A stretch of 64,000 nt of DNA from Spiroplasma clarkii (GTDB lineage Bacteria > Bacillota_I > Bacilli_A > Mycoplasmatales > Mycoplasmataceae), in contig NZ_CP024870.1 of the NCBI RefSeq assembly GCF_002795265.1, positions 682,001 through 746,000 on the forward strand, read 5' to 3'. A model generated the notes under the pieces. It was not told the DNA's origin, searched no databases, and was given only the letters and a program-made list of their open reading frames with translations. The first letter of the stretch is position 1; each line of letters begins with the position of its first letter. The translations under genes were made by a program, and so were the position numbers. Shown piece after piece: positions 29,357 to 50,308 of this stretch.

Positions 29357-30907
29357 TGTAGCTATCAAAACAAATTTGGACTTTTAGTAATTTTAATACA
29401 ACTTTCAATAAATTGCTAGTTTAATAGGAGTGCTTTTTATATCAACTTGAGTATTTTTTCTTAAAAAATATAAAGTTTGATTGAGCTCAGACAGAGATGC
29501 TTTTAATTTTTTGTGGCATATCTTCAGGTTTCACTCCTTCATTTTCAAGAACAACTTTTGATTTGTAGAGCATTTCATTATCAAATTCAATCATACTATA
29601 ATAGTTATCACCAAGTGATGCGATAAGGTTACCATCACAACATTGAATTATCATAATCTCTCGTCTAGGTATATTTAATGGTGTTGTGAAATTGCATATA
29701 AAGTACTTTTCCTTTTCATAGGTAACAGTTAGATCTCTTGCAACCACTCTAATTGATTTGTGTCCCAAAATAATATTTAGATCTCCCTCAAATTTTTTGA
29801 ATGAATTTGTAGTAAAATCTTTTTGAAGCGTTACAACATGATTATTTAAATACTCAACAAATTTTGGTAAGACTAGATTGGCCTCATTAATATTTGTGAC
29901 TTTATTTTGTTCCATAAAGGTAGTGATTGTACCTTTAATGGTTTTTCAGAGCCTTTCAATCCTTGGTTTGAATTGTGGTGAAATTGATGATTGGATGTCA
30001 ATACCTAAGTTTTTAGCTACAAATGCAAACTGAATTCAAGAATCTTCGGGCGAAGATTCTTTTTTTTCACTCCAAAAAGTTCTGCGTTTGTCAGTTCTTA
30101 GCACTTCAAAAGTCCCATAATTTTTTAAGACCGGTTTCAAAGCATTGAAATAACCTTCAGTAGTTTCTTGATGATCAAAATATAATCCTAAAACCTCTCC
30201 ACTTGCCTCATCAATATAACCATGCAATGCCCAAATCTCCTCATCACTGAATCTTCAAAATGTAGCATCAGCTTCAACAACATGACCACGCCTTTGGGTT
30301 CTTGGCCTTGCAATATGGATATTTTCTTTTGCTCTTTCTGTAGCTGAGGAGGGAACCAGTAGACTTTGAGGTCTATTTTTCAACTCTTCTTCTTTTGCTA
30401 ACAATTTGATAGTTTTTTTATGTGCCAGTTTTGAGCAATGATTTTTAGATCTTAAAATATTGTAAATATATGAATAACTCACCCACTGATAGTCATATCT
30501 TTTATCTGCTTTTAAATAGCGCATAAAATCCCTAAAATTACAGTTTAAGTACTCATCCCTAAAAATCCTGCTAATCTCTAGTGCTTGCATATGGGTTCGC
30601 TTTTGAGCATGCTTATTGTTTTTATTTTTGTGGATAAAGAAGGCCTCACCAATTTCTTTGTATTTTTTAATGGCATCATAAAACCATGATCTACTACCAC
30701 CACTTTTTATCAAAAGTTCTCTTTTGGCTGCTTTATCCCTGGATAAAGCAGCCTCCCTAATAATATCTTGTATATGTTTGTTGGTTTTCATTTGTCTTTT
30801 ACCTCTATAATTTCTTTTCATTTTTATTCCCTGATTTCCTTTATTATTATAATAAAGTCCAGTTTTGTTTTGATAACATTTAGTCCTTTTTTGTTTTGAT
30901 AACAATG
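29357..30907 (-). mobile_element. IS1202-like insertion sequence, copy 2
   Basis: The element is 1551 bp, with the same ends and layout as copy 1, flanked by a 29-bp duplication. It is inserted between the terminator of the short Ig-like lipoprotein and the promoter region of the long one. Confidence 0.88.
29421..30821 (-). CDS. IS1202-type DDE transposase, copy 2
   Basis: The protein has 466 residues and is nearly identical to copy 1. Relative to the others it has an Arg to Trp change just after the ESSPEDS segment (CGA to TGA), which would look like a stop in the standard code but is Trp here, and N to S and K to I differences near the C-terminus. The catalytic candidates Asp185, Asp244 and Glu289 are kept, so it could be active. 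The antisense terminator-like hairpin lies at about 30039-30067. Confidence 0.88.
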
Positions 30908-37923: not shown

Positions 37924-39474
37924 CATTGTTATCAAAACAAAAAAGGACTAAATGTTATCAAAACAAATTTGGACTTTATTATAATAATAAAGGAAATCAG
38001 GGAATAAAAATGAAAAGAAATTATAGAGGTAAAAGACAAATGAAAACCAACAAACATATACAAGATATTATTAGGGAGGTTGCTTTATCCAGGGATAAAG
38101 CAACCAAAAGAGAACTTTTGATAAAAAGTGGTGGTAGTAGATCATGGTTTTATGATGCCATTAAAAAATACAAAGAAATTGGTGAGGCCTTCTTTATCCA
38201 CAAAAATAAAAACAATAAGCATGCTCAAAAGCGAACCCATATGCAAGCACTAGAGATTAGCAGGATTTTTAGGGATGAGTACTTAAACTGTAATTTTAGG
38301 GATTTTATGCGCTATTTAAAAGCAGATAAAAGATATGACTATCAGTGGGTGAGTTATTCATATATTTACAATATTTTAAGATCTAAAAATCATTGCTCAA
38401 AACTGGCACATAAAAAAACTATCAAATTGTTAGCAAAAGAAGAAGAGTTGAAAAATAGACCTCAAAGTCTACTGGTTCCCTCCTCAGCTACAGAAAGAGC
38501 AAAAGAAAATATCCATATTGCAAGGCCAAGAACCCAAAGGCGTGGTCATGTTGTTGAAGCTGATGCTACATTTTGAAGATTCAGTGATGAGGAGATTTGG
38601 GCATTGCATGGTTATATTGATGAGGCAAGTGGAGAGGTTTTAGGATTATATTTTGATCATCAAGAAACTACTGAAGGTTATTTCAATGCTTTGAAACCGG
38701 TCTTAAAAAATTATGGGACTTTTGAAGTGCTAAGAACTGACAAACGCAGAACTTTTTGGAGTGAAAAAAAAGAATCTTCGCCCGAAGATTCTCGAATTCA
38801 GTTTGCATTTGTAGCTAAAAACTTAGGTATTGACATCCAATCATCAATTTCACCACAATTCAAACCAAGGATTGAAAGGCTCTGAAAAACCATTAAAGGT
38901 ACAATCACTACCTTTATGGAACAAAATAAAGTCACAAATATTAATGAGGCCAATCTAGTCTTACCAAAATTTGTTGAGTATTTAAATAATCATGTTGTAA
39001 CCCTTCAAAAAGATTTTACTACAAATTCATTCAAAAAATTTGAGGGAGATCTAAATATTATTTTGGGACACAAATCAATTAGAGTGGTTGCAAGGGATCT
39101 AACTGTTACCTATGAAAAGAAAAAGTACTTTATATGCAATTTCACAACACCATTAAATATACCTAGACGAGAGATTATGATAATTCAATGTTGTGATGGT
39201 AACCTTATCGCATCACTTGGTGATAACTATTATAGTATGATTGAATTTGATAATGAAATGCTCTACAAATCAAAAGTTGTTCTTGAAAATGAAGGAGTGA
39301 AACCTGAAGATATGCCACAAAAAATTAAAAACAACTCTGTCTGAGCTCAATCAAACTTTATCTTTTTTAAGAAAAAATACTCAAGTTGATATAAAAAGCA
39401 CTCCTATTAAACTAGCAATTTATTAAAAGTTGTATTAAAATTACTAAAAGTCCAAATTTGTTTTGATAGCTACA
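37924..39474 (+). mobile_element. IS1202-like insertion sequence, copy 3
   Basis: The element is 1551 bp, in the opposite orientation to the other three copies, beginning CATTGTTATCAAAAC and ending GATAGCTACA. It is flanked by an exact 29-bp duplication. It lies between the small reverse-strand gene and the AAA+/subtilase pair. Confidence 0.88.
38010..39410 (+). CDS. IS1202-type DDE transposase, copy 3
   Basis: The protein has 466 residues and differs from copy 1 by Ala to Val and Ala to Thr changes near residues 25-33 (EVALSRDKATKRE). The candidate catalytic triad Asp185, Asp244 and Glu289 is intact. ATG 38010 follows GGAAATCAGGGA. The coding frame includes TGA Trp codons at 38574, 38883, 39342 and about 39388, and stops at TAA 39408. 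The antisense terminator-like hairpin is at about 38763-38792. Confidence 0.9.
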
Positions 39475-39523: not shown

Positions 39524-39614
39524 TTGTCCCAAAATATAGCATTTTGGTAGCAAAACAAGGAATTTTGTCCCAAAAAAATTCTTTTTGTCCCATTTTGAGA
39601 TTTTAATATATAAT
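39524..39614 (+). promoter_or_regulatory. Promoter with three phased TTGTCCC repeats
   Basis: TTGTCCC occurs at 39524-39530, 39565-39571 and 39585-39591, spaced 41 and 20 bases, close to four and two helical turns. The third copy also gives a -35 (TTGTCC 39585-39590) 18 bases from TATAAT (39609-39614). A protein bound to these repeats would control the AAA+/subtilase genes; the HTH-bearing ATPase is a candidate. Confidence 0.6.
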
Positions 39615-39631
39615 ATTGAAGAGGTGAGCCA

Positions 39632-40657
39632 ATGGAGCGATTAATACAAATAGACCCAAAAATTTTGTTAAAACTTGCAGAGTTTGTTCAAGAGGGAAAT
39701 ATTACAGAGAGACAAAAAAAGATATTGTTTAATCAAATTTCTGAGGTTTTACAAGAAAATAACATGAGAAAAGAATCAATTTATATTAAAGATTTACTGG
39801 GGCATATTGCATATGCTAAGGTTTTAAAAGAAGCAGATGAAATTGATACCACTAAGTTTCAGTTTTTAAAAAGTGAGCTGTTAAGTGAAGAGCTACCAAA
39901 ACAAAGATTAGGTAGACTTGTTGAAATAATTAACAATGATCATGTTGTTTATAAGTTTAATGGTTTGAAAATCTTTATTTATGGAAAACCAGGAACCGGA
40001 AAAACAAGTTTAGTTCAGACATTGGCAGCAGCAACTAAAAAACATCTATACTCAGTTTCTGCCAGTAACATAATTTCATCAAGACTTGGAGAAACTCAAA
40101 AAAATATTGATAAATTATTTGAAGAAATTAAAGAAGCCCATTATGGCTCAATTATTTTAGTAGATGAATTTGATTCATTACTGGGATCTAGGGATAGAGA
40201 AATTAATGATGAGTACTATAGAATGATTGGTACTTTTAATAAAAATCTAGATAAGTTACCAAAAGGTTCAATAGTGATAGCGATTTCAAATAAACCTAGT
40301 TTCATTGATGATTCGACTCTAAGACGATTTAATTTAAAAATTGAAATGAATGAAATTAGTTTAGATGATTTAGTTAAGACTTTTGTTTGCAGAGCAAAAG
40401 ACTTTAATTTTGAAGTTGATGAAAACCTAATTAATAAAATTGCACAACTAAAGTATGATGATTTAAATTATTCACTGGTTGAAAATGTCATTTCCATTGC
40501 TCTTTTAGAGGAAAAATCCATAGAAGGGGCATTTGCAAAGTTTTTAAATCTTTCCTTAGATGATCTGAAAAATAAAAAATTTACATTGAGAGAAATTGAA
40601 AAAGTTAGTGGGATTAGTAGGTCAACACTACAAAGGAAAAGAAAAGATGGTGAATAG
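39632..40657 (+). CDS. AAA+ ATPase with C-terminal HTH, partner of a subtilase
   Basis: The protein has 341 residues. An N-terminal helical region (1-105) is followed by an AAA+ core: Walker A GKPGTGKT (118-125), Walker B ILVDEFD (Asp178-Glu179), sensor-1 Asn220 in AISN, and paired Arg231-Arg232 in LRRFN. Residues 318-338 (LREIEKVSGISRSTLQRKRK) look like a helix-turn-helix. It resembles the ATPases encoded next to S8 proteases in many bacterial genomes. ATG 39632 follows GAGGTGA. The protease gene starts within 3 bases of its stop. Role unknown; protein remodelling to feed the protease, defence and autoregulation are all possible inferences. Confidence 0.85.
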   Translation: MERLIQIDPKILLKLAEFVQEGNITERQKKILFNQISEVLQENNMRKESIYIKDLLGHIAYAKVLKEADEIDTTKFQFLKSELLSEELPKQRLGRLVEIINNDHVVYKFNGLKIFIYGKPGTGKTSLVQTLAAATKKHLYSVSASNIISSRLGETQKNIDKLFEEIKEAHYGSIILVDEFDSLLGSRDREINDEYYRMIGTFNKNLDKLPKGSIVIAISNKPSFIDDSTLRRFNLKIEMNEISLDDLVKTFVCRAKDFNFEVDENLINKIAQLKYDDLNYSLVENVISIALLEEKSIEGAFAKFLNLSLDDLKNKKFTLREIEKVSGISRSTLQRKRKDGE

Positions 40658-40659
40658 TC

Positions 40660-42884
40660 TTGAATATTGTTAAATATAGGGCTCCCCACAGAATTGTTCC
40701 TCAAAATTCTAGTGGTGGCATTGATTATACAAAATTAAGTTTTAATTTTGTATCTCAACTTAAAGACATTTTAAAAAGCTGTTTAGAAATTTTTGAAAAT
40801 TTTAAAAAATGAAGTGAATTTACTACATTACCAATTTCAATTACATATTCAAAATTGGTTCCAAAAACATCTAGAGTGTCAAAGTTATTTAAGTTAAGAG
40901 ATTCAGAACCATTTCAAATCGGTTCTGAATATATATTTTCAAAAGATGCAGAAGATATTCAAAAGATTCGCATTGTTTATGAATGTGGACTTGAAGATGT
41001 AAGAAAGACTTATACTAATCTAAGTCAGCTTTTTGAGATTATTAATAAAAACTATCCAAATATAGATTTATTAATGGCCACAAAGCTTAAAGAAATTAAA
41101 AATTCTAATGATTTAAAATCTAAACAAAAAAAACCAAAATTTAAGGAATTTATTAAGAACAATTTTAATCTGTTAAAAAATAAGCATTGAGAAATTTTAA
41201 AAGACCTAACTTATATAGAAAAAGTTGAAATTAAAATTTGAAATGAGTTTGATAAAGCACCAATATTTTCATTTTTACCATTAAAGTCAGTAGAACAATG
41301 AATAATAATTTTGGGAAAATATGATATTAATATTAAAAAAGAGTGATTAATTGCAGGTGAATATTGAAACATAAACATTGAGGATGTTAACAAAATTGTA
41401 AGGCATTTTCCATATGCATTTGCATTTGCAACCAATGATGTAGAATGTTGCTTAGAATCTGATGAGTTTATTGATAAGATTGATATTGATATTGAAATGC
41501 AAAGTAATAGTAAATTTAATAAAGAAATAATTGGTGTTTTTGATTCATATTGTGACTTGCCAAGTTCTTGGTTAGAACATGCTGTGATAAGTAGTGAAAA
41601 ACTAATTCCAATTTCTAAAAATAGAGATACAGCACATGGTACACAAGTAGCATCATAATAATTGGGAATGACTTAATTAACAGTTCATATAAGGACAATT
41701 TAGGGTTATTTAAAATTAAATCATTTGAAGTTTTACCGCAGGGAACAATATTGGTGAGTACATTAGTTCGGGAAATTGAAAATGTAATTAAAAATAATTG
41801 TGATACAATTAAAATTTGAAATTTATCAATTGGTTGTGAGAGAATAGGGAAATGTATTTCTTTTTTTGGGAAATTCATTGACCAACTCCAATATATTTAT
41901 GATGTGTTATTTATAATTGCTGCTGGTAACTATGGAGACAATAAACTCATTATGCCTGCAGACTCATTAGCTGCTATTGCAGTGGGCACAGCTTATAAAG
42001 ATACTAATAACAAAATAAAAACCTGGAGCAAATCTGGAACTGGTAAAGTTTTTGGGACATATGAAAAGCCAGACTGTTATGAAATCGGGAATGCAATTGG
42101 TGCTTCAGATTGAAACCAAGACCCACAAATTACTTTAAGTGGGCCATCTCAACCCAAAGTTGAAAATGGAACTTCATTTTCTGCACCCTTAGTTGCTCGA
42201 AAGGATGCATATTTGTTGGGAAAATATAATTTGAATGTTCAGTCAACCAGAGCATTAATTAAACATTTATCTTCATTAAATCCAAATAAAATATGTGACT
42301 TAGGTATTTTAGATGATTTCAAAAATGATTGACTTATTCTTATTGAAGGGAGCACCGAAAAAGGTCTACTTAAAGAGGTTAGAGTCAAATTACCTGTAGA
42401 TTTTTTTTCAAAAACAGAATTTGTTGTAGCATACTCACTATCATATAATGTTCCAGTTTTGAATGACATCGGTGATGAGTACACACCTTTTGATCTTTTT
42501 TTTAAACTTGCTAAAGTTAATGGAGATAACAAAAGACCAAACATAATAAAAAGTAATAATAATAAAAATGATGGAGTTGATGCTAGTGAGAGCACTTTAA
42601 GAAAGCACTTTGGTAAATTCAACCCAAATATTGTGTTGATTAATAACAGTTTTTGTAACAAAACACCAATTAAAATTTCAGCAACAGACAACGAGTTTGG
42701 ATTTGTAATTAAAAGAACCGATCTAGTTGGGTTTGAAACTGAATCAATTGGATATGGATTGATAGTTCATTTGAGAGAAGTTGTTGAAAATTCACTAAGT
42801 TCATTTATTGATTTAAATGCAGAAAATATTATTGAAATAATTGACTTGGAACAAACCATAGATGACTTAGAAATCAAACAGTAA
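40660..42884 (+). pseudogene. Subtilisin-like serine protease (S8), frameshifted
   Basis: The gene encodes about 741 residues in two frames. Start is probably TTG 40660, 3 bases after the ATPase stop. The N-terminal third is a helical extension. The catalytic Asp is at 41542-41544 (IGVFDSYCD) and the His at 41635-41637 (TAHGTQVAS) in the first frame, which hits TAATAA at 41656. Moving to the next frame at about 41653-41655 gives VASIIIGND and an open frame to 42884 with the oxyanion Asn (IIAAGNYG, 41928) and catalytic Ser (NGTSFSAP, 42174). So one base seems to be missing. There is no homopolymer or slippery heptamer there; it is either a real inactivating mutation or a sequence error. No signal peptide is seen, so the protease would be cytosolic. 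Confidence 0.8.
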
Positions 42885-42951: not shown

Positions 42952-43133
42952 AATGAAAAATTAAAAAAGATTAAAAAAAATAAAAGTCTGTGCTATGATA
43001 ATTGTGATAGTAGTAGAGGACCAAAAGTTCAGCCAGGCATAGAAAATATGCGGCAAACTCAGGAAGCTATTGATTGATATACTAAAAAAGAACTAGATGT
43101 TTTTTTTATAAGGTCTTTGCTAGTCCTTTTTTT
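42952..43133 (+). ncRNA. Candidate small structured RNA
   Basis: A roughly 180-base unit has its own promoter and a terminator and no coding frame. It holds a locally GC-richer core (about 42985-43075) unlike the surrounding AT-rich spacers, with a clear hairpin GCC-AG-GCATA-GAAAA-TATGC-GGC at about 43033-43053. The P-type ATPase downstream has its own promoter at 43190, so this is more likely an independent RNA than a riboswitch. I could not match it by eye to SRP RNA, RNase P, tmRNA, M-box or yybP-ykoY consensus motifs. Confidence 0.5.
43087..43133 (+). terminator. Terminator of the candidate small RNA
   Basis: AAAGAACTAG (43087-43096) pairs, with one mismatch, with CTAGTCCTTT (43120-43129), then a T run. 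The loop itself contains eight T. Confidence 0.55.
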
Positions 43134-43189
43134 ATGCCTAAACAATAAGAAAATAATGACAATTTAGCCATAATCATTTTATAATATCT

Positions 43190-48783: not shown

Positions 48784-50308
48784 TGTAGCTATCAAAACAA
48801 ATTTGGACTTTTAGTAATTTTAATACAACTTTTAATAAATTGCTAGTTTAATAGGAGTGCTTTTTATATCAACTTGAGTATTTTTTCTTAAAAAAGATAA
48901 AGTTTGATTGAGCTCAGACAGAGTTGTTTTTAATTTTTTGTGGCATATCTTCAGGTTTCACTCCTTCATTTTCAAGAACAACTTTTGATTTGTAGAGCAT
49001 TTCATTATCAAATTCAATCATACTATAATAGTTATCACCAAGTGATGCGATAAGGTTACCATCACAACATTGAATTATCATAATCTCTCGTCTAGGTATA
49101 TTTAATGGTGTTGTAAAATTGCATATAAAGTACTTTTTCTTTTCATAGGTAACGGTTAGATCTCTTGCAACCACTCTAATTGATTTGTGTCCCAAAATAA
49201 TATTTAGATCTCCCTCAAATTTTTTGAATGAATTTGTAGTAAAATCTTTTTGAAGGGTTACAACATGATTATTTAAATACTCAACAAATTTTGGTAAGAC
49301 TAGATTGGCCTCATTAATATTTGTGACTTTATTTTGTTCCATAAAGGTAGTGATTGTACCTTTAATGGTTTTTCAGAGCCTTTCAATCCTTGGTTTGAAT
49401 TGTGGTGAAATTGATGATTGGATGTCAATACCTAAGTTTTTAGCTACAAATGCAAACTGAATTCGAGAATCTTCGGGCGAAGATTCTTTTTTTTCACTCC
49501 AAAAAGTTCTGCGTTTGTCAGTTCTTAGCACTTCAAAAGTCCCATAATTTTTTAAGACCGGTTTCAAAGCATTGAAATAACCTTCAGTAGTTTCTTGATG
49601 ATCAAAATATAATCCTAAAACCTCTCCACTTGCCTCATCAATATAACCATGCAATGCCCAAATCTCCTCATCACTGAATCTTCAAAATGTAGCATCAGCT
49701 TCAACAACATGACCACGCCTTTGGGTTCTTGGCCTTGCAATATGGATATTTTCTTTTGCTCTTTCTGTAGCTGAGGAGGGAACCAGTAGACTTTGAGGTC
49801 TATTTTTCAACTCTTCTTCTTTTGCTAACAATTTGATAGTTTTTTTATGTGCCAGTTTTGAACAATGATTTTTAGATCTTAAAATATTGTAAATATATGA
49901 ATAACTCACCCACTGATAGTCATATCTTTTATCTGCTTTTAAATAGCGCATAAAATCCCTAAAATTACAGTTTAAGTACTCATCCCTAAAAATCCTGCTA
50001 ATCTCTAGTGCTTGCATATGGGTTCGCTTTTGAGCATGCTTATTGTTTCTATTTTTGTGGATAAAGAAGGCCTCACCAATTTCTTTGTATTTTTTAATGG
50101 CATCATAAAACCATGATCTACTGCCACCACTTTTTATCAAAAGTTCTCTTTTGGCTGCTTTATCCCTGGATAAAGCAGCCTCCCTAATAATATCTTGTAT
50201 ATGTTTGTTGGTTTTCATTTGTCTTTTACCTCTATAATTTCTTTTCATTTTTATTCCCTGATTTCCTTTATTATTATAATAAAGTCCAGTTTTGTTTTGA
50301 TAACAATG
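48784..50308 (-). mobile_element. IS1202-like insertion sequence, copy 4 (short right end)
   Basis: The element is 1525 bp: it lacks 26 bases at the right end, because the two tandem copies of the terminal repeat present in copies 1-3 are reduced to one. It is flanked by a 28-bp duplication, so it inserted in this form or lost the bases afterwards. Confidence 0.88.
48848..50248 (-). CDS. IS1202-type DDE transposase, copy 4
   Basis: The protein has 466 residues and starts at 50248, the same ATG chosen in the other copies; here no upstream in-frame start remains because of the missing 26 bases, which supports that choice. It has a Lys to Arg change near residue 73. The catalytic candidates are intact. 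Antisense terminator-like hairpin at about 49466-49494. Confidence 0.9.

What the first reader, a model, noticed from the sequence alone, without database searches (positions are those of the whole stretch)
39524..42884. AAA+ ATPase with HTH plus cytosolic subtilase under helically phased TTGTCCC repeats
The promoter carries three TTGTCCC copies spaced 41 and 20 bases, near whole helical turns, and the last one doubles as the -35. The ATPase has both an AAA+ core and a C-terminal HTH, so it might bind these repeats and control itself. The protease has a complete Asp-His-Ser triad but no signal peptide. A regulated cytosolic protease with an ATPase partner looks like an inducible defence or toxin-type module rather than a secreted nutrient enzyme; this last step is inference.
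Basis: partly seen in the sequence, partly recalled or inferred. Interest (0 to 1): 0.7.

Follow-up and report, generated by a model that had tools for sequence, protein, structure and literature searches.

The report
Toxin-antitoxin pair with phased operator repeats
This is a mollicute copy of a known protease toxin-antitoxin (anti-phage) pair whose toxin gene is interrupted here; its promoter repeats belong to a wider, apparently undescribed pattern in which the antitoxin's DNA-binding tail and repeats spaced two helix turns apart change together across bacteria.

Summary
The observation mostly holds. The TTGTCCC repeats, the AAA+ ATPase and its C-terminal helix-turn-helix (HTH) are real. 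The subtilase is not one open gene: a frameshift lies between the catalytic His and Ser, while relatives have intact 707-784 aa genes. The pair is a divergent member of IetAS/IteAS/SgiAT, a known toxin-antitoxin and anti-phage module already shown to work in mycoplasmas.

The new part is general. In 74 non-redundant IetA loci, the promoter's best self-match falls at 20, 21, 41 or 42 bp in 53, against about 5 expected. The repeated word differs by locus but goes with the HTH. GF[TS]xREIE-type HTHs pair with TGTCCCA from mollicutes to Carnobacterium; other HTHs pair with TTACTCA, TACA or AGAAACGATTTT. Copies with a degraded HTH, and classic proteobacterial IetA without one, lack the arrays. Word similarity follows HTH similarity after controlling for the ATPase core (partial Mantel r=0.50, p=0.001).

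Best reading: IetA autoregulates its operon by binding an array phased at two helical turns. In this window the operator and antitoxin look intact and the toxin looks dead, unless the frameshift is a sequence error.

The parts
39524..39530 (+). operator word 1, TTGTCCC
39544..39550 (+). degenerate slot in register (TTGGTAG), 20 bp after word 1
   Evidence: inferred to be a decayed site
39565..39571 (+). operator word 2, TTGTCCC
39585..39591 (+). operator word 3, TTGTCCC, overlapping a possible -35
39609..39614 (+). predicted -10 box TATAAT
   Evidence: sequence; position
39632..40657 (+). ietA: AAA+ ATPase, presumed antitoxin (341 aa)
40580..40648 (+). C-terminal helix-turn-helix of IetA (FTLREIEKVSGISRSTLQRKRK)
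40660..41658 (+). ietS 5' part, table 4; catalytic Asp codon 41542-41544, His codon 41635-41637
41625..41658 (+). overlap of the two open frames: region of the frameshift
41625..42884 (+). ietS 3' part in the second frame; catalytic Ser codon 42174-42176

Best explanation
This is a divergent, HTH-bearing IetAS-type toxin-antitoxin / anti-phage module. By homology, IetS is a cytosolic subtilase toxin and IetA an AAA+ ATPase that neutralises it. IetA's C-terminal HTH binds a direct-repeat array over its own promoter, one HTH every two helical turns on the same DNA face, and so (inferred) represses the operon, probably as an AAA+ oligomer. Each HTH subfamily has its own word. Shown here by sequence statistics: the array, its 20-21 bp period, its link to an intact HTH, its covariation with HTH type, and its overlap with the promoter. 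From literature on homologues: toxicity and neutralisation. Inferred: binding, repression, induction, oligomeric form. In this window the toxin frame is broken, so this copy is most likely an antitoxin with its operator plus a dead toxin gene, unless the frameshift is a sequence error.
For: PADLOC/NCBIfam IetA and IetS hits on both genes. Intact A-S pairs in relatives. 53 of 74 non-redundant loci peak at lags 20/21/41/42; shuffles give 5.2 on average, flank windows 10%. HTH profile score of 5 bits or more: 50/59 with the period; below: 3/15; Fisher 4e-6. Arrayed TGTCC-type sites in 29/40 loci matching a loose GF[TS]xRE-like pattern and 0/34 others, p=8e-12. Partial Mantel word~HTH given core: r=0.50, p=0.001. 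HTH-degraded copies L077, L078, L087, L129, L146 and the second copy in L082 lack arrays. The own genome's orphan IetA (L034) has a different HTH and a different word ([TG]ACA x5, exactly 21 bp apart). 18 of 24 Mycoplasmatales genomes with a TGTCCC pair at this spacing have it directly upstream of IetA. Last word 13-15 bp upstream of the predicted -10 in 28 of 44 listed loci. Homologues are functional TA pairs (PMC8562856, PMC5006074).
Against: No binding or expression data. Some HTH-bearing loci show no clear array (L073, L079, L082 first copy, L153, L156, L157), and some loci without this HTH do (L046, L089, L091, L038). NCBIfam scores are far below the equivalog cut-offs (99.6 vs 510; 68 vs 900), so this is a divergent relative. 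The structural model of the HTH has low confidence (pLDDT about 52). Relatedness among loci inflates the Mantel test somewhat. The test of HTH pattern against TGTCC sites was framed after seeing the data.
Confidence: 0.8

Rival explanations
1. The repeats are bound by some other regulator (a host global repressor or a phage-induced factor), and IetA's tail serves protein contacts instead.
For: No binding data; a few arrays exist at loci whose IetA lacks the usual HTH (L038, L046, L089, L091).
Against: The word changes with the HTH type, also between two IetAs of the same genome (window TGTCCC, L034 [TG]ACA); HTH-degraded copies lose the array; in Mycoplasmatales the spaced TGTCCC pair sits mainly upstream of IetA.
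Confidence: 0.1
2. The pair is a Clp-like proteolytic machine: the AAA+ ring unfolds substrates and feeds them to the subtilase, for regulated cytosolic proteolysis rather than toxin-antitoxin control.
For: AAA+ and protease in one operon; Walker motifs and arginine finger conserved.
Against: In homologues the protease alone is toxic and the ATPase neutralises it (PMC8562856, PMC5006074); orphan IetAs exist without a protease (L034, L035). The two ideas could both hold.
Confidence: 0.15
3. In this genome the locus is only a decaying remnant: toxin dead, array partly decayed, no present function.
For: Frameshift in ietS, degenerate second slot, IS copies on both sides.
Against: ietA is intact with conserved motifs and HTH; the rest of ietS is well conserved, so the break is recent or a sequence error.
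Confidence: 0.35

Closest known systems
IetAS of Agrobacterium Ti plasmids (Yamamoto 2009; cited in PMC8562856 and PMC5006074, paper itself not held)
   Same: AAA+ antitoxin gene directly upstream of an S8 protease toxin gene; same PADLOC families
   Different: The Ti-plasmid IetA examined here (pTiEML4, L130) has no C-terminal HTH and no 20-21 bp array upstream
AAA-ATPase/subtilisin TA132/3 of Mycoplasma mycoides subsp. capri (Hill 2021, PMC8562856)
   Same: Same gene pair and order in mollicutes; shown to be toxin and antitoxin
   Different: The main text describes no HTH or operator for this pair; the window copy has a broken toxin frame
SgiAT of Salmonella Genomic Island 1 (PMC5006074)
   Same: AAA-ATPase antitoxin and subtilisin toxin, functional TA pair
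   Different: Sits on an integrative mobilizable element; its promoter was not compared here
DnaA boxes with dnaA autoregulation, and plasmid iterons bound by Rep (general knowledge)
   Same: AAA+ protein with C-terminal HTH (DnaA), or direct repeats about two helical turns apart (iterons), with autoregulation
   Different: No replication role seen; different HTH type; the word changes between loci. Analogy only, not membership

Membership tests
IetAS / IteAS | AAA+ ATPase of the IetA family | tested here: met
   PADLOC IetA 3.8e-31; NCBIfam IteA 2e-28 but 99.6 bits against a cut-off of 510: relative, not equivalog
IetAS / IteAS | S8 subtilase of the IetS family directly downstream | tested here: met
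   Pfam S8 1e-15; PADLOC IetS 4.6e-24 on the 3' part and 5e-4 on the 5' part
IetAS / IteAS | Intact protease with the triad in one reading frame | tested here: not met
   Frameshift between His and Ser in this copy; intact in relatives. Membership is therefore claimed for the locus, not for a working module
IetAS / IteAS | Walker A/B and arginine-finger residues in IetA | tested here: met
   G118-T125, D178/E179 and R231/R232 invariant across 16 sequences
IetAS / IteAS | Toxicity of S and neutralisation by A, or phage protection | not testable with these tools
   Known only for homologues (PMC8562856, PMC5006074)
HTH-type IetA with phased operator (subgroup proposed here) | C-terminal HTH | tested here: met
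   37.6 bits in the leave-one-out profile; helices 319-326 and 330-338 (low confidence)
HTH-type IetA with phased operator (subgroup proposed here) | Direct repeats 20-21 bp apart over the promoter | tested here: met
   20-21-20 register, one slot degenerate
HTH-type IetA with phased operator (subgroup proposed here) | IetA binds the repeats | not testable with these tools
   Covariation only

The most novel reading that the evidence does not exclude
The array is more than an operator: an AAA+ IetA oligomer laid along the two-turn-phased repeats holds the protease on DNA and senses infection, for example by loss of ATP or of the DNA complex. The fast-changing HTH-word pairs would then be a private code that keeps several co-resident modules from disturbing each other.
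Probability: 0.12. Interest if true: 0.85.

Novelty: new variant of a known kind. Interest (0 to 1): 0.58.

Why it matters
IetAS/SgiAT/IteAS systems occur widely, but I found no account of how they are switched on. The HTH-word pairing gives concrete operators for dozens of loci, predicts which protein reads which word, and marks natural HTH-loss copies as controls. It makes autoregulation, cross-talk between co-resident modules and the induction trigger directly testable in laboratory hosts. For the window itself, the result is a known module with a broken toxin gene.

Tried and rejected
The genome-contig scan with close IetAs found only two loci; viral-contig scans with three IetA proteins found none. 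TTGTCCCA pairs in viral contigs: none of the 80 loci held IetA, so taken as chance in a very large collection. PADLOC IetA over the phylum was swamped by FtsH-like ATPases. The structure job with two sequences gave a poor model (mean pLDDT 51), so no fold search was made. Programmed frameshifting was considered: no slippery heptamer is seen at the break and relatives read through in one frame, so rejected. A rule that the last repeat is always the -35 was rejected. A structured RNA downstream of the protease gene: no Rfam match at threshold, folding z -1.1.

Full report
What is there. The window is mollicute DNA read with table 4 (TGA=Trp), inside a 1.56-Mb single-contig genome. At 39524, 39565 and 39585 lie three TTGTCCC copies on the + strand. 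A degenerate slot in register at 39544 makes the real spacing 20-21-20. A TATAAT follows at 39609-39614, then a 341-aa AAA+ ATPase (39632-40657) and a subtilase-like protein (40660-42884). The heptamer itself is not rare in the window, but three on one strand within 70 bp appeared in none of 200 dinucleotide shuffles.

The protease frame is broken. Under table 4 the first frame runs 40660-41658, carries the Asp and His motifs (GVFDS, AHGT) and ends in two TAA codons. The frame with the rest of the protein, including the Ser motif NGTSFSAP, is open from 41625 to 42884. Relatives have one intact frame of 707-784 aa. The window protein is well conserved on both sides of the break, so the break is recent or a sequence error; I could not tell which. 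No other IetS-like protease is found in the genome.

Identity. The ATPase matches PADLOC IetA (3.8e-31) and NCBIfam IteA_antiphage; the protease parts match IetS/IteS. The NCBIfam scores are far below the equivalog cut-offs, so this is a divergent relative. The AAA-ATPase/subtilisin pair is an established toxin-antitoxin system in mycoplasmas (PMC8562856) and, as SgiAT, on SGI1 (PMC5006074); both cite IetAS of pTiC58 (Yamamoto 2009, not held). I found no account of an operator or HTH for these antitoxins in the main text of PMC8562856 or in the literature searches. Papers outside the open library could hold one.

The promoter repeats are general. I collected IetA loci from 320 Mycoplasmatales genomes (48 genomes positive), from other Bacilli and from plasmids. 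Reading the promoters showed direct repeats about 20-21 bp apart at most loci, with a word that differs by locus. For 74 loci with IetA under 70% identical, the strongest self-match in the 150 bp upstream falls at lag 20, 21, 41 or 42 in 53. Dinucleotide shuffles give 5.2 on average (maximum 13 in 40 rounds), and windows from the same flanks 10% (binomial p about 5e-35). The lags 20 and 41 come from the window's own spacing; 21 and 42 are the full two-turn values and were seen in the first relatives.

Which protein reads the word. A leave-one-out profile of IetA C-termini, built without regard to the DNA, separates the loci: 50 of 59 scoring at least 5 bits have the period, against 3 of 15 below (Fisher 4e-6). 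Arrayed TGTCC-type sites occur in 29 of 40 loci whose C-terminus matches a loose GF[TS]xRE-like pattern and in 0 of 34 others (this test was framed after seeing the data). In 43 loci with arrays, word similarity correlates with HTH similarity after controlling for ATPase-core identity (partial Mantel r=0.50, p=0.001), much more than with the core after controlling for the HTH (0.19).

Natural experiments. Window and L036 share TGTCCC, while L039-L041, with cores 46-54% identical to them, have an unrelated HTH (FSDKDK...SYST) and TTACTCA. Carnobacterium plasmid IetA (L127, 24% identical overall to the window protein) has GFTVREIEKLKG and CGTCCCA/TGTCCCA 20 bp apart. Copies whose HTH is degraded (L077, whose promoter and tail are those of Mesomycoplasma hyorhinis NCTC10121, L316; L078; L087; L129; L146; the second copy in L082) have no array. 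The orphan IetA of the same genome (L034, no protease beside it) has a different HTH and five [TG]ACA words exactly 21 bp apart. Beyond Bacilli, Hymenobacter (L134: AGAAACGATTTTC) and Sphingopyxis (L159: AGCCTGACCA) plasmid IetAs with C-terminal HTHs also have arrays. IetAs without an HTH (Agrobacterium pTi, Klebsiella, Rhodococcus, Neorhizobium, Paracoccus, P. aeruginosa) do not.

Place in the promoter. For the TGTCC class, the last copy starts 13-15 bp upstream of a predicted -10, often an extended TGnTATAAT, in 28 of 44 listed loci; in the window and L037 it is 23 bp, in L036 37 bp. In 320 Mycoplasmatales genomes the spaced TGTCCC pair occurs 34 times in 24 genomes (reversed control: 2), and in 18 of those genomes it lies directly upstream of IetA.

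Structure. A model of the window IetA from only two sequences has low confidence (mean pLDDT 51) but places helices at 319-326 and 330-338 around GIS, as an HTH would. This is weak support.

Mechanism. Shown: operator array, period, link to HTH presence and type, promoter position. From the literature on homologues: S is toxic, A neutralises it. Inferred: IetA binds the array through its HTH, one per two turns on one face, probably as an AAA+ oligomer, and represses its operon; loss of IetA or of its DNA-bound form during infection would raise expression. Exceptions remain: HTH-bearing loci without a clear array (L073, L079, L082 first copy, L153, L156, L157) and arrays at loci with short C-termini lacking this HTH (L038, L046, L089, L091), which may use another DNA-binding end.

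Verdict. The window holds an ordinary, probably toxin-dead member of a known module. The surprise is the regulatory rule it belongs to, which appears undescribed in what I could search and is directly testable.

Noticed in passing
window 37953-39474 and 48784-50305: Two 1522-nt IS copies, 99% identical and inverted, bracket the module together with a P-type ATPase gene and lipoprotein genes; the left copy ends 50 bp before the first TTGTCCC. A third transposase copy lies at 29421-30905. Composite-transposon-like or invertible segment not tested.
   Followed up: partly
L034 (G000:C1:1166694-1167740) and L035 (G000:C1:1052433-1053407): Two further IetA-like ATPases in the same genome without a protease beside them. 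L034 has its own HTH and a five-site 21-bp array; L035 has neither and sits near a cytosine DNA methyltransferase-like gene.
   Followed up: partly
L312 about 2877-2903 (G059:C2, three copies): TTTGTCCCA pair 21 bp apart about 200 bp upstream of a small transposase-like ORF in a repeated unit of a 27-kb contig, with no IetA nearby.
   Followed up: partly
L130 and L132: In HTH-less proteobacterial IetAS loci a DUF6088 gene lies just upstream of ietA; it may take over the regulatory role.
   Followed up: no
L038, L046, L089, L091: Short IetA relatives without the usual HTH also have 20-42 bp phased repeats (AAGTGT- or GGGTAT-like words), several with an SxRxK-type C-terminus.
   Followed up: no
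window 43000-43135: Intergenic stretch before the P-type ATPase gene ends in a terminator-like hairpin; no Rfam family at threshold and folding not unusual.
   Followed up: partly
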